A stretch of 64,000 bases of DNA, taken from positions 186,001 through 250,000 of the forward strand of contig NZ_CP054476.1 of assembly GCF_013341275.1 (NCBI RefSeq), given 5' to 3'. The position numbers and the translations under genes were made by a program. The notes beneath the pieces are model-generated. The model was not told where the DNA came from. It saw only the letters and a list, made by a program, of their open reading frames with translations, and did no database searches. This document shows positions 49,608-58,005 of this stretch, piece by piece; position 1 is the first letter of the stretch; each line of letters opens with the position of its first letter. Origin of the DNA: Methyloligella sp. GL2 (GTDB lineage: Bacteria > Pseudomonadota > Alphaproteobacteria > Rhizobiales > Methyloligellaceae).

Positions 49608-49727
49608 GCGCGCGCCAAGGGGCTTCACCCCGGTCTGGCGCGGGAACCCCCGGTTTCGCGCGTTCGTTGGTCCTTTTTGCCCGGCACATGCGCGCAAACG
49701 GCGATCACAGTCTTAGGAGTCCGCGTC

Positions 49728-50621
49728 ATGGCGCTGCCCCGCCCCTATTGGACCGGCCGGCTTCGGCTTTCCCTGGTGACCATCCCCGTGCGGCTTTTTC
49801 CGGCGACCACCACGGAGCGGAAGATCGCCCTGCATCAGATCTACGAGCCGACCGGCGAGCGCATCCGCTATCAGAAAGTGGCGCCGAGCGTCGGCCCGGT
49901 CGACACCGACGAGATCATCAAGGGCTACGAATATGAGAAGGGCAAATATGTGCTGCTCGATCCAGAGGAGATCGACGCGCTGAAGCTGGAGAGCAAGCAG
50001 ACCATCGAGCTGATCCGCTTCGTCGATCAATCGGAGATCGATGCCCGCTACTACGAACGGCCCTATTACCTGCTGCCCGACGGCGAGGACGCAGACGAGG
50101 GCTATGCGGTGCTGCAGCAGGCGCTGGAAAAATCCGGCAAGGTCGGGATCGGCCAATTCGTGATGCGCGGCCACAGCTCGATTGCGGCGATCAAGGCCTG
50201 CGGGCGCGGGCTGATCCTGGAGATCTTGCGCCATGCCGACGAGGTGCGTTCGGCGGACAAGTTCTTCGACGAGATTCCCGACGTGAAGGTGGACAAGGAG
50301 GCGCTGGAACTCGGCCAGGAGCTGATCGCGCGCAAATCAGGCCCGTTCGAGCCGGAAAAGCTGAAGGACGATTACGAACAGGCGGTGTGGGAGCTGATCA
50401 ACGCCAAGATCGAGAAGCGCGAGCCGGAGGCGATCTCCGAGGCACCGCAGACGGCCAAGGTGATCAACATCATGGACGCGCTGAAGAAAAGCGTCGCCAG
50501 CCAGGACAATAAGAAGAGCGCGGGCAAGACGCGGACCGGCGGAAGCGCCAAATCCCGGAGCGCCAAGTCTCGGACCGCAAAGACTCAACCGACCAAGACG
50601 GCACGGCGGAAATCCGCTTAG
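49728..50621 (+). CDS. ku: Ku protein for non-homologous end joining
   Basis: 297 residues: Ku core (PRPYWTGRLRLSLVTIPVRL, then YEKGKYVLLDPEE, and FEPEKLKDDYEQAVWELI) with a Lys/Ser/Thr-rich C-terminal tail of about 45 residues. Bacterial Ku forms a homodimer ring on DNA ends and recruits LigD, encoded 3 bases downstream. AGGAG precedes the ATG at 49728. Confidence 0.97.
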   Translation: MALPRPYWTGRLRLSLVTIPVRLFPATTTERKIALHQIYEPTGERIRYQKVAPSVGPVDTDEIIKGYEYEKGKYVLLDPEEIDALKLESKQTIELIRFVDQSEIDARYYERPYYLLPDGEDADEGYAVLQQALEKSGKVGIGQFVMRGHSSIAAIKACGRGLILEILRHADEVRSADKFFDEIPDVKVDKEALELGQELIARKSGPFEPEKLKDDYEQAVWELINAKIEKREPEAISEAPQTAKVINIMDALKKSVASQDNKKSAGKTRTGGSAKSRSAKSRTAKTQPTKTARRKSA

Positions 50622-50624
50622 GCC

Positions 50625-53183
50625 ATGACCGAGGCGAGCGGTAAGGCAAGCGATCTTCTCGCCGAATACCGGGCCAAGCGCGATTTCGGCAAGACGCCGG
50701 AGCCCGGACCGGAACGCAAAGCCGACTCCGGCAATAGCTACGTCATCCAGAAACACGCCGCGACCCGCACCCATTTCGATTTCCGCCTGGAGCATGACGG
50801 GGTGCTGAAGAGCTGGGCGGTGACCCGCGGACCCAGCACCGATCCTTCGCAGAAGCGCCTGGCGGTCCGCACCGAAGACCACCCGCTCGCCTATGGCGGC
50901 TTCGAAGGGGTGATCCCTAAGGGCGAATATGGCGGCGGCCCTGTGATGCTTTGGGATCGCGGCAGCTGGGAGCCGATCGGCGATGTCGATAAGGGGCTGA
51001 AGAAGGGCCATCTCGACTTCGTGCTGCATGGCAAGCGCCTGAAGGGCGAGTGGCATCTGGTGCGGATGAAGCCGGATAAGCGCGGGCAGAAGCGCGAGAA
51101 CTGGCTGCTGATCAAGGGCTCCGACGATGCGGCGGAGACAGGCGGCGAGCCGACGGAGCGCTTTGACACGAGCGTCGCCAGCGGCCGCACGATGGACGAG
51201 ATCAAGAACGGCGAGAGCGCGGTGTGGAGCTCCGATCCGTCGAAAACGCCGGGCAAGACTAAGAATAGCGGCGGGAAGAGCGGCGCGAAGAATGGCGGCG
51301 AAAAAGCGCCCAGCCAACGCGCGAGCGCTCCGGATTTCGTCGAACCTCAGCTCGCCACGCTGGTGGACAAGGTGCCCCCCGGCAAAGGCTGGATCCATGA
51401 GGTGAAGTTCGACGGCTACCGCATCGAGGCACGCAAAGACGGCGATCGGGTCACCCTCTATAGCCGCAGCGGCCTGGACTGGACGGCGCGCTTCCCGGCC
51501 ATCGCCAAGGCGTTTTCCAAGCTTTCCTGCAAATCGGCGCTGATCGATGGCGAGGCGGCTTTCGTGCTGCCTTCAGGGCTGACCAGCTTCAAGGCGCTGC
51601 AGGAGCATATCGACACCGACAATCCGGCGATCCGCTATTACGCCTTCGACCTTCTGGCGCTGGACGGCAAGGATCTCCGCAACGAGCCGCTTTCGAAACG
51701 CAAGGCGGCGCTGAAGCAGCTGTTCGCCAAGAAACTGCCGGAGCGGCTGGTCTATTCCGACGATATCGAAGGCGAGGGCGATGTGTTCTTCGCCAAGGCC
51801 TGCGCGGTGGGGCTGGAAGGCATCATGTGCAAGCGGGCCAGTGCGCCGTACCGCTCCGGCCGCTCCAAGAGCTGGCTGAAGGTGAAGTGCAGCCATGAGG
51901 AAGAGTTCGTCATCGGCGGCTATGCCAAATCCAGCGCGCGGGGGCGGCCCTTCGCTTCGCTGCTGCTCGGCACCTATGACGGCGATAGGCTGATCTTCGC
52001 CGGCAAGGTGGGCACCGGATTCGATACCAAGACGCTGAAAGCGCTGGCGGCGAAGTTCAAGCCGCTGGAGCGCAAGACCGCGCCTTTCGAAGAGGTGCCG
52101 ACCGCCGACAGGCGCGATGCGGTGTGGCTCTCCCCGAAGCTGGTCGGCGCGGTTCGCTTCACCGAATGGACACCGGAGGGGCGCCTGCGCCATCCGAGCT
52201 TTCAGGGCTTGCGCGAGGACAAGCCGGCGAAAGAGGTGTTCCGCGACATGGCGGCCAAGGCGTCAGAGGAGAGCGGCAAGATGGCGAAGGATCCGCGTTT
52301 CGACGGGATCGAACTCTCAAGCCCCGACCGGGTGCTCTATCCGGAGATCGGTCTCACCAAGCTGGGCCTCGCCGAATATTACGACAAGGTTCGGGACGCG
52401 ATGCTGCCCTATCTGGTCGACCGGCCGATCAGCCTGGTGCGCTGCCCAGAGGGGCACACGGAAGAGTGCTTCTTCCAGCGCCACGCCATGAAGGGGATGA
52501 GCGCTGCGATAAAGCAAATCGCCATTCCCGGCGGCGAGACGAAGGAGAAGTATCTCTATATCGAGAACGCCGAAGGCCTGTTCGCCCTGGTGCAGATCGG
52601 GGTGCTGGAGATCCACGATTGGGGCGTCTCGACAAAGGCGCTGGATAAGCCGGACCGGCTGGTCTTCGATCTCGATCCGGATGAAGGTCTCTCGCTCGAG
52701 ACGCTGAAAGCGGCCACCATCGAGGTGCGGGATTTCCTCGCCGATCTGGGGCTGAAAAGCTTCCTGAAATCCACCGGCGGCAAGGGTTTTCACGTGGTGG
52801 CGCCGCTCACCCCGAAGGCCGGATGGGACGAGGTGAAGGCATTCTGCAAGGCTGTGGCCGATGCGCTGGTGACCGCGCGCGGCGACCGCTACACCGCCAC
52901 GCTTTCCAAGAGCGCCCGCGAGGGCAAGATCTTCGTCGATTACCTGCGCAATCAGCGCGGCAGCTCGGCCATCGTCAATTTCTCCACCCGGGCGCGGGCG
53001 GGCGCGCCGGTCGCTACGCCGCTGCGCTGGGACGAGCTCAGCGGCCTCAGCCAAGCGGCCGCCTATACGGTTTCGACCCTGCCGCGGCGGCTGGCCAGCC
53101 TGAAAAGCGACCCTTGGGAGGGATTTTTCCAGACGCGGCAGTCGATTAGCAAAAAGGCGCGATCCACGCTCGGCCTCGAATAG
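50625..53183 (+). CDS. ligD: ATP-dependent DNA ligase LigD, PE-ligase-polymerase order
   Basis: 852 residues. Order: 3'-phosphoesterase domain (about 35-165; HAATRTHFDFRLEHDG with metal-binding His and Asp, then EDHPLAYGGFEG), linker rich in Lys/Ser, ATP ligase with adenylated K261 in EVKFDGYR, and C-terminal primase-polymerase with D682 and D684 in DLDPDEG. This is the Pseudomonas-type domain order. With the adjacent Ku it rejoins double-strand breaks. Confidence 0.97.
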   Translation: MTEASGKASDLLAEYRAKRDFGKTPEPGPERKADSGNSYVIQKHAATRTHFDFRLEHDGVLKSWAVTRGPSTDPSQKRLAVRTEDHPLAYGGFEGVIPKGEYGGGPVMLWDRGSWEPIGDVDKGLKKGHLDFVLHGKRLKGEWHLVRMKPDKRGQKRENWLLIKGSDDAAETGGEPTERFDTSVASGRTMDEIKNGESAVWSSDPSKTPGKTKNSGGKSGAKNGGEKAPSQRASAPDFVEPQLATLVDKVPPGKGWIHEVKFDGYRIEARKDGDRVTLYSRSGLDWTARFPAIAKAFSKLSCKSALIDGEAAFVLPSGLTSFKALQEHIDTDNPAIRYYAFDLLALDGKDLRNEPLSKRKAALKQLFAKKLPERLVYSDDIEGEGDVFFAKACAVGLEGIMCKRASAPYRSGRSKSWLKVKCSHEEEFVIGGYAKSSARGRPFASLLLGTYDGDRLIFAGKVGTGFDTKTLKALAAKFKPLERKTAPFEEVPTADRRDAVWLSPKLVGAVRFTEWTPEGRLRHPSFQGLREDKPAKEVFRDMAAKASEESGKMAKDPRFDGIELSSPDRVLYPEIGLTKLGLAEYYDKVRDAMLPYLVDRPISLVRCPEGHTEECFFQRHAMKGMSAAIKQIAIPGGETKEKYLYIENAEGLFALVQIGVLEIHDWGVSTKALDKPDRLVFDLDPDEGLSLETLKAATIEVRDFLADLGLKSFLKSTGGKGFHVVAPLTPKAGWDEVKAFCKAVADALVTARGDRYTATLSKSAREGKIFVDYLRNQRGSSAIVNFSTRARAGAPVATPLRWDELSGLSQAAAYTVSTLPRRLASLKSDPWEGFFQTRQSISKKARSTLGLE

Positions 53184-54030: not shown

Positions 54031-54198
54031 CTAAGAAGACGCTTGCGGCGTCGAATGAATGGGAAAGTGGCCACCGGTCTTTCCGGCACTTGCTGCTCGC
54101 CGAGCTGTCGACCTTCCGCAATGGAACGCAATTCGGTGGCTAGTTGTAACTCGTGATCGGTCCTATAGTTGTCCCTTACGTGTGTCGCTCGAAGACTT

Positions 54199-55536
54199 AT
54201 GCAGAACGCTCCGGCAATCAACTGGACAAATGAATCAGTGAAGGCGTTCGCAAAGAACGCAGACCCGCTTGAAGCAATTGAACGGGCCGCCCGTGCGCTT
54301 GTTCTGAAGGCGAGGGAGAGCGGGTGGGAAGGACCTCCCTTCAATCCGCTCCGCATCGCCGAAATGTTAGACGTGCAAATTGAGGCGAACTCTAGCATCG
54401 CTGACGCTCGCCTAGTCGCAACTGAGAGCGGACCGAAGATCGAGTTCAATCCCCAACAACCACGCGAGCGTGTCCGATTTTCGATCGCTCACGAAGTAGC
54501 GCACATGCTCTTTCCAGATTGGCACGACCAAATTCGGAATCGCGGCGGGCAGAAAGAGATTGCGGACGACTGGCAGCTCGAAATGCTCTGCAATCTGGCA
54601 GCGTCCGAGTTCGTCCTGCCCATCGGTAGCTTGTCATCGGCATCAACGGTACCCTCGATTGAAGACCTGATGCGCCAGCGTCGCGAATACGATGTTTCGG
54701 CGGAGGCATTTCTTATTCGACTTGCCAAGATCTCCACACAGCCTATCGGCGTGTTCTTCGCGTCACCGCATCAATCAGGCAAGGCCGAGCGCCGCTATAC
54801 GGTTAACTATTTTGTTGGTTCTCCCACTGCCCCAAAGGCTCAGATATCTGGGACGGATGTTCCAGCCAGCAGTGTCATTCATAGCTGTACGGCTATTGGA
54901 TACACGGATCGTTCGGTAGAGAGCTGGGTAATCGGTTCACCGACGCAGATCGAATGCGTTGGAATTCCCGCCTACCCCGGTAACGTCTATCCGCGCGTCG
55001 CCGGACTAGTCAGGTTTGACCGAGCGCAAGTAGACCTGAAGCCAATAAGAATTCTCCACGGCAATATCCTTGAGCCTCGAAACGGCGGGCAGAAAATCAT
55101 CTGTCAACTGGTGAACGACAAGGCTGGTACGTGGGGGGGCGGTGTGGCGCGGAAGATGGCCGGCCGCTTCCCAGATGCTGAGGTCCAATTTAGGGAACAA
55201 ATTGTTCATCTTCCCCGCAGCGAACGGCTTGGCCGAGCGATATTCTCGCAGGCGAGTGACGAAATCACTATTGCGAGCTTAATCGCGCAGGAAGGACATG
55301 GGCCGTCCCTCTTTCCACGAATCCGTTACTCTGCCCTGAAGAACTGTCTTGAAGCAGTAACACAGCGAGCCAAGGAAACCGGGGCGACTGTCCATATGCC
55401 ACGAATAGGTACGGGATCTGCCGGTGGTGATTGGGGGACAGTTGAAGAGATGCTTGACGACATAATGGTGCGAGCAGGAGTGTTCGTTACGGTCTACGAT
55501 CCACCGCCCAGACGACCTCAACTAGAGTTATTTTGA
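54199..55536 (+). CDS. ImmA/IrrE-type zinc peptidase fused to a macro domain
   Basis: 445 residues. An N-terminal ImmA/IrrE-like domain (about 48-190) has HEVAH at 98-102 and third ligand E128 in a LEMLCNLAASEFVLP helix. Between about 195 and 280 is a beta-rich part common to such proteins. From about 283 to 435 there is a macro domain of TARG1/DarG appearance: HGNIL, QLVNDKAGTWGGGVARKM, and MPRIGTGSAGGDWGTVEE. The first should cleave a repressor or partner; the second should bind or remove ADP-ribose. The stop TGA abuts the next start (TGATTG). A TTG at 54169 could add ten residues. First gene of the islet operon. Confidence 0.88.
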   Translation: MQNAPAINWTNESVKAFAKNADPLEAIERAARALVLKARESGWEGPPFNPLRIAEMLDVQIEANSSIADARLVATESGPKIEFNPQQPRERVRFSIAHEVAHMLFPDWHDQIRNRGGQKEIADDWQLEMLCNLAASEFVLPIGSLSSASTVPSIEDLMRQRREYDVSAEAFLIRLAKISTQPIGVFFASPHQSGKAERRYTVNYFVGSPTAPKAQISGTDVPASSVIHSCTAIGYTDRSVESWVIGSPTQIECVGIPAYPGNVYPRVAGLVRFDRAQVDLKPIRILHGNILEPRNGGQKIICQLVNDKAGTWGGGVARKMAGRFPDAEVQFREQIVHLPRSERLGRAIFSQASDEITIASLIAQEGHGPSLFPRIRYSALKNCLEAVTQRAKETGATVHMPRIGTGSAGGDWGTVEEMLDDIMVRAGVFVTVYDPPPRRPQLELF

Positions 55537-57168
55537 TTGGCGAACCGACACGCTGCTCTCCGGATTGTTTTAGTGTCTGGCCCGATTTGCTCTGGCAAAT
55601 CGGCGCTTGTCCGACAATTGACCGAAAAGCACCATGCCGAAATCATCAAAACAAAAGAATTGATACTGAAGAAAGCTCCGAAAACGAAACCCGCGCGCCG
55701 GGCATTGCAGTTGGCAGGGCAGCGACTCGACAATGCCGACGGCGGTGCTTGGGTGGGAGAAGCACTTCAGAGGGTCGTGGACATTTCTTCAAAGGGACAG
55801 ACGCCCAAAGGCTTGTACGTTGTAGATTCAGTCCGCATTCCCGGCCAGATAGCGGCAATTCGGAAGGCATATGGCGCGGAAGTCCATCACATCCATCTCA
55901 CGGCGACTCCCAAGGAACTTCGCAGGCGTTATGGGTGCCGCCAGCGAGAAGAAGACGAGACCGTCGGTTACGATGCATTAAAGCGGAACCGCACTGAGCG
56001 AGAGATAGAAAAGCTCGCGGATATTGCGGATGTCGTCGTTGCTACGGACAAGTGCAGTGAAGAAGCGGTTCTTGTTCGCGCTACCGCGCTTCTGAACCTT
56101 TATCCGCGTTCGAATGACGCACTCGTCGATGTGCTGATTGGCGGTCAGTACGGCAGTGAAGGGAAGGGAAATATCGTTGGGCACATTGCACCCGAGTACG
56201 ATCTGTTAATCCGGGTGGGCGGACCAAACGCGGGCCACCAAGTCTATGCCGAACCGGATCCAGAAAAATACTATCATCTTCCTTCTGGCACGCGACGCGC
56301 CCCCAACGCGCAACTGTTGTTGGGTCCAGGTGCGGTCATCTTTCCTCCGAAGCTCCTGGAAGAGATTGCGGCTCATAAGATTTCTACGGATCGCCTAACC
56401 ATCGACGCTCAAGCCATGATCATTACCGATGATGACCAGAAAGAGGAGGAGAAACGCTTCAAGAGCATAAGTTCGACCGCCCAAGGCGTTGGCATCGCAT
56501 CGGCCCGAAAGATGACTGGTCGGTCTGCGTATAAAGAGAAGAAAGCACAGTTCCTAGCCAAGGATTGTCCCGACCTGAAACCGTATATCGGAAACGCCCG
56601 GAAGGTGATTGCTGATGCAATTGTGGAGGGGAAACGGATACTGCTTGAGGGTACTCAGGGTACGTCGCTGAGCCTGCACCATGGACAGTACCCCCATGTG
56701 ACGACCCGCGATACTACGGTTTCTGGATGTCTTGCTGATGCAGGGATCGCTCCCTCGAACGTGCGTAAAGTTATCATGGTCTGTCGCACGTACCCAATCA
56801 GAGTCGGGGGGCCATCAGGGGAGATGGCGTACGAATTGACGATGGAAGACATTCATAAGCGAAGCGGTATCCCCTTGGACCAGCTTAAGCGAACGGAAAC
56901 GACGACCACAACCAACCGCGAGCGCCGAATTGCCGAGTTTGATTGGGTTCAATTCAAAGATTCAGTACAGCTAAATGGGCCGACGGATATCGCTCTCACC
57001 TTCGTCGACTATTTTGATTTTAAGAATCGGGAAGCGTACCGATTCGAGCAGTTGACCCCTGAAACGATCAGCTTCGTCGAAGAAATCGAACGGGTCTCCG
57101 GGAGGCCGGTTTCGCTACTGTCGACCGATTTCAACTGGCGGAACATTATCGACCGGAGAGCGTGGTGA
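55537..57168 (+). CDS. P-loop nucleotide-kinase-like domain fused to PurZ/PurA-like adenylosuccinate synthetase
   Basis: 543 residues. Residues 1-190 are a P-loop NTPase like dNMP or cytidylate kinases: Walker A GPICSGKS (15-22), then LYVVDSVRIPGQIAAIR and a Arg-rich lid (RRRYGCRQREED). Residues 195-543 are an adenylosuccinate synthetase. The catalytic loop, normally GDEGKG, reads GSEGKG (S207 for Asp), and GGHNAGH reads GGPNAGH (P230 for His). Other PurA landmarks remain: EGTQGTSLSLHHGQYPHVT and YPIRVGGPSGE. These two changes are those I recall for phage PurZ, which uses dGMP. Start TTG directly follows the previous stop. Confidence 0.9.
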   Translation: MANRHAALRIVLVSGPICSGKSALVRQLTEKHHAEIIKTKELILKKAPKTKPARRALQLAGQRLDNADGGAWVGEALQRVVDISSKGQTPKGLYVVDSVRIPGQIAAIRKAYGAEVHHIHLTATPKELRRRYGCRQREEDETVGYDALKRNRTEREIEKLADIADVVVATDKCSEEAVLVRATALLNLYPRSNDALVDVLIGGQYGSEGKGNIVGHIAPEYDLLIRVGGPNAGHQVYAEPDPEKYYHLPSGTRRAPNAQLLLGPGAVIFPPKLLEEIAAHKISTDRLTIDAQAMIITDDDQKEEEKRFKSISSTAQGVGIASARKMTGRSAYKEKKAQFLAKDCPDLKPYIGNARKVIADAIVEGKRILLEGTQGTSLSLHHGQYPHVTTRDTTVSGCLADAGIAPSNVRKVIMVCRTYPIRVGGPSGEMAYELTMEDIHKRSGIPLDQLKRTETTTTTNRERRIAEFDWVQFKDSVQLNGPTDIALTFVDYFDFKNREAYRFEQLTPETISFVEEIERVSGRPVSLLSTDFNWRNIIDRRAW

Positions 57169-57833
57169 CCGAAGAGGAACTTGAAGAGCTGATCGCCGAT
57201 TGTCCAACGCTCTATCACATGGCCGAGCGAGGATCATGGGCATCCATTAAGGAGCGAGGCTTACTTAGCACGTCGGCACTTTTGGACCTTTACGCTGTTC
57301 AAGAACCTCTACGAAGCGGGATCGAGAGGCAGCACCGCCCATGTGGCGTTGGACTTCAGGCGAGTGGGTTGCCGCGTGCTGTTGTGCGCGATCAGATTCC
57401 GATGAGCGATGCGGGGCTCAAGCGGTGCCTGCCAGGGCATCTAACCCCGGCGGACTGGTACGGGTTGTTGAACGCAAAAGCCTTCTTTTGGTTGACGGAA
57501 GGCCGATTGCACAAGTTAACCGGCGCCAAGGCGTACCGGGACCGAGAGCACGACGTACTTGAGGTAGACACGCGTTCGCTGATCGAAGCTCACCGGGACG
57601 CCATATGGCTTTGTCCGATGAACAGTGGCTGCACAAAACCTATGCCGCATCCCAGAGATGAGTCGACCTTCGCTCGGATTTCGGACTATCCGTACGAATA
57701 CTGGCGCGGGAAGCGATCCAAGGGCGAACGTACGGTCGAGCTTGCTGTAGATTACTCTGTGCCGGATATCCGCGATCACGTCAGGCGAGTGGTCGTCAAA
57801 CAGGGCGACGTTGTCGTTAGTGTCATCGAGTAG
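57165..57833 (+). CDS. DUF7002-like protein, possible DarT-type ADP-ribosyltransferase
   Basis: 222 residues (GTG at 57165; GTG at 57162 also possible), overlapping the previous stop. It opens with LYHMAERGSWASIKERGLLST, the His-then-GLL pattern seen at the start of DarT and related ADP-ribosyltransferase folds. Later blocks are LLNAKAFFWLTEGRLHKL and REHDVLEVDTRSL. I believe the family is catalogued as DUF7002, function unknown. Ribosome site GGAGAG. With the macro-domain gene two upstream it could form a toxin/antitoxin-like pair; this is inferred, and the catalytic residues cannot be confirmed by eye. Confidence 0.82.
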   Translation: MTEEELEELIADCPTLYHMAERGSWASIKERGLLSTSALLDLYAVQEPLRSGIERQHRPCGVGLQASGLPRAVVRDQIPMSDAGLKRCLPGHLTPADWYGLLNAKAFFWLTEGRLHKLTGAKAYRDREHDVLEVDTRSLIEAHRDAIWLCPMNSGCTKPMPHPRDESTFARISDYPYEYWRGKRSKGERTVELAVDYSVPDIRDHVRRVVVKQGDVVVSVIE

Positions 57834-57929: not shown

Positions 57930-58005
57930 TGGTGCCGCTTGCGTGACTCGAACACGCGACCCCATCATTACGAATGATGTGCTCTACCAACTGAGCTAAA
58001 GCGGC
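57930..58005 (-). tRNA. tRNA-Thr (anticodon CGT)
   Basis: 76-base cloverleaf on the minus strand with encoded CCA. Acceptor stem GCCGCTT/AAGCGGC; anticodon stem CATCA/TGATG around TTCGTAA gives CGT, reading ACG. The 3' end points at the islet, which begins at once on the other side. Confidence 0.97.

What the first reader, a model, noticed from the sequence alone, without database searches (positions are those of the whole stretch)
55537..56106. N-terminal P-loop kinase-like domain fused to the PurZ-like enzyme
Residues 1-190 have Walker A GPICSGKS and a lid rich in Arg, like NMP/dNMP kinases. Fusing such a domain to a purine aminating enzyme would channel the product towards di- and triphosphate. 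In phage Z-genome pathways separate kinases do this. A fused version looks like a dedicated nucleotide-making machine; alternatively the P-loop domain may sense nucleotides.
Basis: partly seen in the sequence, partly recalled or inferred. Interest (0 to 1): 0.78.

Follow-up and report, generated by a model that had tools for sequence, protein, structure and literature searches.

The report
Kinase–PurZ fusion in defence-like operon
A nucleotide kinase-like domain is truly fused to an enzyme of the type phages use to make the unusual DNA letter Z, and in the bacteria examined this fusion travels with a protein shaped like a DNA-modifying toxin, which hints at an undescribed bacterial defence or toxin system.

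Summary
The fusion is real: one open frame of 543 aa (55537-57168). Residues 9-187 model as an NMP-kinase-like P-loop kinase (AdkA-like 3lw7, Z 19.1); residues 195-543 as a PurA/PurZ enzyme (PurA Z 46.5, phage PurZ Z 41.9). PurA's catalytic Asp is Ser, as in PurZ. It misses NCBI's PurZ cut-off, so I call it PurZ-like. The same fusion occurs in other bacteria, plasmids and IMG/VR contigs; 22 form one clade (100/100), so it is no frame error. In 16 of 16 bacterial or plasmid loci and 3 of 8 viral contigs the next gene is DUF7002, which models as a DarT-like ADP-ribosyltransferase. The window's operon also has a metallopeptidase-macrodomain protein, and is a low-GC insert beside tRNA-Thr, missing at that place in the one same-genus genome compared. 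Some relatives lie beside defence genes. Best reading: a Z-nucleotide enzyme shared with Z-phages, recruited into a defence or toxin operon, its kinase probably active. No activity was tested.

The parts
55537..56106 (+). N-terminal P-loop (NMP-kinase-like) domain of the fusion, residues 1-190
   Evidence: Pfam AAA_33 5.3e-7; AF2 model, block pLDDT 82-98 over residues 11-190; AdkA-like 3lw7 Z 19.1, 166 aligned, 20% id; phmmer 3lw7 2.2e-6
55579..55602 (+). Walker A, GPICSGKS (residues 15-22)
   Evidence: G15, G20, K21 invariant; position read
56125..57159 (+). PurA/PurZ-like domain, residues 197-541
   Evidence: Pfam 3.7e-54; PRK04293 1.7e-78, PurZ NF038379 2.8e-58, both under their curated cut-offs; 5k7x Z 46.5, 6fm1 Z 41.9
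56155..56157 (+). Ser207 codon at the place of PurA's catalytic Asp (E. coli Asp13, number recalled)
   Evidence: Ser in the 21 fusions readable there, in all 30 phage PurZ rows and L014; Asp in the genome's own PurA and in L015
57162..57833 (+). DUF7002 protein, DarT-like ADP-ribosyltransferase fold; Glu193 (57738-57740) invariant
   Evidence: PF22531 2.4e-70; model pLDDT 83.5; DarT1 8baq Z 9.8; invariant residues in 17 homologues
54169..55536 (+). Metallopeptidase M78 (HEVAH; CapP-like) + macrodomain protein, first gene of the operon
   Evidence: Pfam Peptidase_M78 5.4e-6, Macro 7.1e-6; PADLOC capP 3.1e-16; macrodomain 5e3b 3.8e-21
57930..58005 (-). tRNA-Thr (CGT) at the downstream edge of the insert
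   Evidence: same tRNA in same-genus genome G752

Best explanation
The protein is a two-domain enzyme. Its C-terminal half joins aspartate to the C6 position of (d)GMP, giving N6-succino-2-amino-(d)AMP, the precursor of 2-aminoadenine (Z) nucleotides. Its N-terminal half is an active P-loop kinase acting on a purine (d)NMP of the same pathway. The same fusion serves in phages that probably make Z-DNA. In bacteria it was recruited into a mobile operon whose effector is a DarT-like ADP-ribosyltransferase (DUF7002), held in check in the window's subtype by a macrodomain on a CapP-like metallopeptidase. On infection or DNA stress the Z-type nucleotide, or the purine imbalance it causes, would license or supply that effector. 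Shown: the anatomy, the PurZ-type pocket, the kinase fold, the linkage, the low-GC insert. Inferred: both catalytic activities, substrate, trigger, defence role, and how the ART depends on the nucleotide.
For: Fold of both halves; Walker A K21, D97, R131 and R135 invariant in 14 fusions. Ser207 in 21 of 21 readable fusions and 'PIRV...SG' in 22 of 22. One clade of 22 fusions, 100/100, on the PurZ side of the tree. Of the 5 viral contigs with the fusion and no DUF7002, one carries a DNA polymerase 28% identical over 629 aa to phiVC8's and two a nucleoside-deoxyribosyltransferase + MazG-like protein (L053, L057). DUF7002 follows the fusion in 16 of 16 loci of bacterial genomes and plasmids and in 3 of 8 IMG/VR contigs. 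DarT fold for DUF7002. Macrodomain and M78. GC 54-56% against 63-69% in the flanks; place filled by other DNA in G752. Defence genes beside relatives.
Against: No enzymatic or infection data. The PurZ and PurA curated cut-offs are not met. DUF7002 is not matched to DarT by sequence (0 of 17 at E<=10; hhalign probability 1.6%, 32 columns at the N-terminal His motif), and Foldseek's TM-scores to DarT are only about 0.4. The second bacterial subtype has no recognised macrodomain, so the antitoxin idea does not cover it. DUF7002 also occurs without the fusion, so it does not need it. Defence neighbours were picked, not surveyed, and the window's own flanks were not tested for them. The phage contigs show no DatZ (0 of 8). 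The direction phage to bacterium is not established.
Confidence: 0.48

Rival explanations
1. The P-loop domain is a regulator, not a kinase: it senses nucleotides and switches on the PurZ-like half, which drains (d)GMP/(d)GTP during phage attack, like the anti-phage dCTP deaminases that carry a P-loop domain.
For: The P-loop domain matches the P-loop stretch of PADLOC's anti-phage dCTP deaminase model (residues 11-172 to 157-320, E 4.1e-7) and weakly NF041025 (E 0.013). Defence-gene neighbours. L128 seems to lack much of the lid (read by eye).
Against: Main kinase residues are kept; the same fusion is in viral contigs without DUF7002, where a defence sensor makes little sense.
Confidence: 0.25
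2. A Z-base or succino-nucleotide product is itself the substrate of the DUF7002 enzyme: a short pathway that makes an ADP-ribosylated purine used as a toxin, a signal, or a mark on the element's own DNA.
For: Constant gene order, fusion then DUF7002 (16 of 16 bacterial and plasmid loci); subtype ii adds an HD dNMP-phosphatase-like gene and a 455-aa protein in place of the macrodomain.
Against: DUF7002 genes without the fusion exist; no Z-specific polymerase was noticed beside the bacterial loci, though none was searched for there; no chemistry tested.
Confidence: 0.12
3. It is an ordinary adenylosuccinate synthetase paralogue (IMP to AMP) with a decorative P-loop domain.
For: Best fold and profile matches are archaeal-type PurA (5k7x Z 46.5; PRK04293).
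Against: Catalytic Asp replaced by Ser and the PurA 'GPFPTE' loop absent in the fusions; the genome has its own PurA; the fusion sits in a low-GC insert.
Confidence: 0.06

Closest known systems
Phage PurZ (N6-succino-2-amino-2'-deoxyadenylate synthase; phiVC8, S-2L)
   Same: Fold, Ser for Asp, 'PIRV...SG' loop, side of the tree
   Different: P-loop domain added; below NCBI's PurZ cut-off; found in bacteria with a DarT-like gene
AdkA-like / NMP-kinase-like P-loop kinases (3lw7)
   Same: Fold over 166 residues, Walker A, 'D..R' and lid arginines
   Different: 20% identity; fused to a PurZ-like enzyme; substrate unknown
Anti-phage dCTP deaminase with P-loop domain (PADLOC dCTPase)
   Same: A related P-loop domain on a nucleotide-converting enzyme
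   Different: No deaminase here; a PurZ-like enzyme instead
DarTG / DarT1-NADAR toxin-antitoxin
   Same: Protein of DarT ART fold plus a macrodomain protein in one operon
   Different: DUF7002 not related to DarT by sequence at our sensitivity; macrodomain of another type, joined to M78; an extra kinase-PurZ enzyme between them

Membership tests
PurZ | NCBIfam NF038379 curated score (300 bits) | tested here: not met
   197.5 bits; hence 'PurZ-like'
PurZ | Ser at the PurA catalytic Asp and PurZ-type 'PIRV...SG' loop | tested here: met
   S-2L S23 beside the 2-amino group of dGMP, from passages of PMC8342488, which also call a direct hydrogen bond unlikely
PurZ | Groups with phage PurZ rather than PurA in a tree | tested here: met
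   100/99 branch between 53 rows and the 2 PurA rows; only two PurA rows, no archaeal one
PurZ | Converts dGMP + Asp + ATP to dSMP | not testable with these tools
   needs enzyme assay
PurA (TIGR00184) | Catalytic Asp and curated score 395.55 | tested here: not met
   199.6 bits; Ser207
P-loop NMP-kinase-like fold | Fold, Walker A and lid Arg | tested here: met
P-loop NMP-kinase-like fold | Phosphorylates a nucleotide monophosphate | not testable with these tools
   needs assay
Anti-phage dCTP deaminase | Deaminase domain beside the P-loop | tested here: not met
   no deaminase domain family among the Pfam matches; PADLOC's model covers only the P-loop
DarT (PF14487) | Sequence match to the DarT family | tested here: not met
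   0 of 17 DUF7002 proteins at E<=10 (whose filters drop most matches above 0.1); hhalign probability 1.6%
DarT (PF14487) | DarT ART fold | tested here: met
   Z 8.3-9.8 for seven DarT entries, next family 7.4; Foldseek E 4.9e-4, TM about 0.4
DarT (PF14487) | Catalytic Glu and DNA-base target | tested here: inconclusive
   Glu193 invariant but not superposed on DarT1 E152 (known from passages of PMC11543638); target not testable here
DarG antitoxin | NF048014 curated score (250 bits) | tested here: not met
   13.7 bits; nearest solved macrodomain is 5e3b

The most novel reading that the evidence does not exclude
Bacteria have turned the phage Z-DNA pathway against phages: a kinase-PurZ enzyme makes a 2-aminoadenine-type nucleotide that serves as signal, substrate or poison for a DarT-like ADP-ribosyltransferase, forming a kind of immune or addiction system not described before. 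In phages the same fusion supplies the phosphorylation step so far left to the host.
Probability: 0.3. Interest if true: 0.9.

Novelty: new variant of a known kind. Interest (0 to 1): 0.72.

Why it matters
The accounts of Z-DNA phages seen here leave the steps from dSMP to dZTP to host enzymes (passages of PMC12884076, and PMC8342488); a kinase fused to PurZ in viral contigs is a direct candidate for a phage-encoded step. In bacteria, a PurZ-like enzyme tied to a DarT-fold protein would link unusual-base chemistry to ADP-ribosylation, and both can be tested with a few point mutants.

Tried and rejected
Sequencing frame error: rejected, 22 in-frame fusions in the tree set. Decayed P-loop: rejected by conserved catalytic residues and purifying selection. 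Ordinary PurA: disfavoured. DarT relation by profile: not found; only the fold supports it. DatZ (phrog_7076) in the eight viral records: 0 of 8. phrog_2 (terminase, name recalled): 2 of 8 records, G746 and G747; it also rings in 11 of 14 control genomes. phrog_9 (a phage family picked from memory; no name shown): 0 of 8. The records may be fragments. Phage origin before bacterial capture: suggested by the branching order, but the AU tests reject neither the 17 DUF7002-linked rows as one clade (p 0.34) nor the 5 viral rows without DUF7002 as one clade (p 0.19). L128 as a second, independent fusion: not supported, AU p 0.459 for grouping it with the 22, and its P-loop shares their motifs. A separate P-loop gene beside an unfused PurZ was found in one locus only (L079, E 5e-5).

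Rows left out: the fusions of L037 (run of unknown bases) and L137 (G464) are in neither A1 nor the tree; the tree holds 26 of the 71 unfused viral loci (L128, with its short P-loop, counted here), and 4 named phages. A2 (17 DUF7002 proteins) leaves out the broken copies, L043, L137 and the viral ones. The label 'viral contigs without DUF7002' follows from the search itself; whether L051, L052 and L056 are proviruses was not tested apart.

Literature searched for the fusion or operon in print: DUF7002: 0 papers; 0; 0; listings only, except passages of PMC8342488, PMC12884076 and PMC11543638. The library is open-access PubMed Central only; the original 2021 Science papers on PurZ (recalled) were not seen.

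Not done: no unbiased count of defence genes around the loci (nine proteins chosen because annotation or look suggested defence); no archaeal PurA in the tree; no superposition of DUF7002's Glu193 on DarT; no structure of the M78-macrodomain protein.

Full report
WHAT IS THERE. The open frame 55537-57168 (+) encodes 543 aa starting at a TTG directly after the stop of the gene before it. Pfam finds an AAA_33-type P-loop at residues 11-148 and adenylosuccinate synthetase in the C-terminal part. The AlphaFold2 model, built from 38 sequences of the window and of fetched loci, has mean pLDDT 91.3 and pTM 0.84. Against solved structures, residues 195-543 match P. horikoshii PurA (Z 46.5), phiVC8 PurZ (Z 41.9) and PurZ0 (Z 41.6). 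Residues 9-187 match an AdkA-like protein (3lw7, Z 19.1, 166 aligned, 20% identity), phosphomevalonate kinases (Z 17.2, 15.9) and adenylate kinases (about 15) (Foldseek). phmmer with residues 1-190 alone gives the same AdkA-like protein at E 2.2e-6. So the fold is that of NMP-kinase-like P-loop kinases. In 14 aligned fusions Walker A (G15, G20, K21), D97, R131 and R135 are invariant and R100 nearly so; in 22 P-loop sequences G15, G20, K21 and D97 stay invariant, R135 does not. The domain is under purifying selection.

PURZ-TYPE POCKET. In S-2L PurZ a conserved Ser (S23) lies beside the 2-amino group of dGMP; the authors think its polarity, rather than a hydrogen bond, may help choose guanine (passages of PMC8342488). 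The window reads 'YGSEGKGN'. In the 55-row set, the 21 fusions readable at that place (L058 starts later), the 30 phage PurZ rows and L014 have Ser, while the genome's own PurA and the Rhizobium protein L015 have Asp. The next loop is 'PIRV...SG' in 22 of 22 fusions and in most phage rows (L061 and L102 depart from it); the two PurA rows read 'RVG..GPFPTE' instead. The genome has a separate PurA-family gene at C1:1033359 (E 6.6e-180). The NCBI PurZ model scores 197.5 bits under its cut-off of 300 and PurA models are under theirs too, so I call the domain PurZ-like.

DISTRIBUTION OF THE FUSION. Found in 5 of 385 genomes of the window's class, the own one included (E <= 1e-60); in 2 loci of genome contigs (Sphingomonas sp. 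Leaf20, 74%; a Candidatus Binatia MAG, 65%); over at least 80% of its length in 8 plasmid records (Rhizobium, Agrobacterium, Sinorhizobium, Methylobacterium, about 45%); and in G464. None of 218 phage records with a match covers 80% of it. Among 80 loci kept of 253 in IMG/VR (79 contigs, as L058 and L092 are ends of one), 8 contigs carry a fusion of this kind; L128 has a shorter related P-loop before a divergent PurZ. In a maximum-likelihood tree of the PurZ-like domain, the 22 fusions form one clade (100/100) on the PurZ side; viral fusions L055 and L057 branch first. AU tests do not settle the direction of transfer.

THE OPERON. In the window the gene before (54169-55536) joins an M78 metallopeptidase (HEVAH; PADLOC capP 3.1e-16) to a macrodomain (best solved match 5e3b, 3.8e-21). 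The gene after (57162-57833, overlapping the fusion) is DUF7002. Its model (pLDDT 83.5) matches seven DarT entries at Z 8.3-9.8, next family at 7.4; Foldseek puts DarT1 first at 4.9e-4 with TM about 0.4. H19, the FFW stretch, N154 and E193 are invariant in 17 homologues. Sequence methods do not connect it to DarT, so the claim is 'DarT-like fold', with an ART activity inferred.

LINKAGE. DUF7002 follows the fusion in 16 of 16 loci of bacterial genomes and plasmids: window, L001, L002, L006-L013, L036-L039, L137. Of the 8 IMG/VR contigs with the fusion, 3 have it (L051, L052, L056) and 5 do not, over the whole records held. Two bacterial forms exist. Form i (7 loci: window, L001, L002, L036, L037, L051, L052) has the M78-macrodomain gene. 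Form ii (11 loci: L006-L013, L038, L039, L137) has an HD protein (phrog_318, dNMP phosphatase, 3.2e-62 for L012) and a protein of about 455 aa without family (in L137 the HD gene was read by eye). L056 shows neither, but an extra lone P-loop gene. DUF7002 also occurs without the fusion: of 11 of 372 class genomes with it (own included), 5 have the fusion and 6 gave no fusion match; in at least G314 and G349 it is broken by stops.

A LOW-GC INSERT. GC is 54-56% from about 54.0 to 57.9 kb against 63-69% in the windows fully outside it. In a genome of the same genus (G752) both flanks align (74-76% upstream, 69-76% downstream, same tRNA-Thr), but the 4.0 kb with the three genes does not; 4.9 kb with other frames stands there. 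Beside relatives of the operon in other hosts stand genes that match PADLOC defence models: GajB (L010), SIR2-HerA and AbiEii (L012), type I restriction (L036), type I methyltransferase (L052), candidate PDC-S32 (L013), and more weakly GajB-type UvrD (L006). These nine proteins were chosen by me and are single-gene matches, so the count is 'at least 5 of 18 loci with longer flanks', without control. The window's own flanks were not scanned for defence genes.

PHAGE SIDE. Of the five viral contigs with the fusion and no DUF7002, one has a DNA polymerase 28% identical over 629 aa to that of phiVC8, two more have family-A polymerase matches, one below Pfam's cut-off, and two have a nucleoside-deoxyribosyltransferase + MazG-like protein near the fusion, which recalls the DmtZ-type enzymes of PurZ0 phages (passages of PMC12884076). 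None of the 8 records has a DatZ match and 2 of 8 gave a phrog_2 match. That paper says host enzymes turn dSMP into dZTP. A kinase tied to PurZ would therefore be a new phage part, but it could not act on dZMP without PurB in between.

VERDICT. 'Kinase-like domain' holds as fold; 'channelling machine' is unproven. The best reading is a Z-nucleotide enzyme shared with phages and used in a horizontally moved, defence- or toxin-like operon with a DarT-fold protein. I found no paper describing it in the searches named under Tried and rejected.

Noticed in passing
L039:8557-9927 and homologues in L006-L013, L038, L137: A conserved protein of about 455 aa accompanies form ii of the operon; the L039 copy matches no Pfam, PHROGs or NCBIfam family. 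By eye it resembles an ATP-grasp domain (recalled, untested).
   Followed up: partly
L014:6296-9057: Sinorhizobium medicae plasmid: a PurZ-like gene without P-loop, beside an HD phosphatase related to that of form ii and a weakly dCTP-deaminase-like protein: another bacterial PurZ cassette.
   Followed up: partly
L015:6447-14795: Rhizobium plasmid cluster with folE, PurA-like, purB, QueE, QueC and IMP dehydrogenase genes, as for a 7-deazapurine compound (annotation; the compound is my guess).
   Followed up: no
L079:5929-7586: Viral contig in which an unfused PurZ frame overlaps a separate P-loop kinase-like gene.
   Followed up: partly
L056:5989-8884: Viral-collection contig with a lone P-loop gene of the same family directly before the fusion and DUF7002.
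   Followed up: partly
L040, L042, L045, L046: Broken or partial DUF7002 copies without the fusion, several in one genome (G349), suggesting loss.
   Followed up: no
L160:6112-11045: At the same tRNA-Thr place a same-genus genome carries other frames, including one of 1,226 aa, so the site may be an insertion hotspot.
   Followed up: no
window 49677-53183: Upstream flank: frames that look like Ku and a multidomain ATP-dependent DNA ligase (by eye, untested).
   Followed up: no
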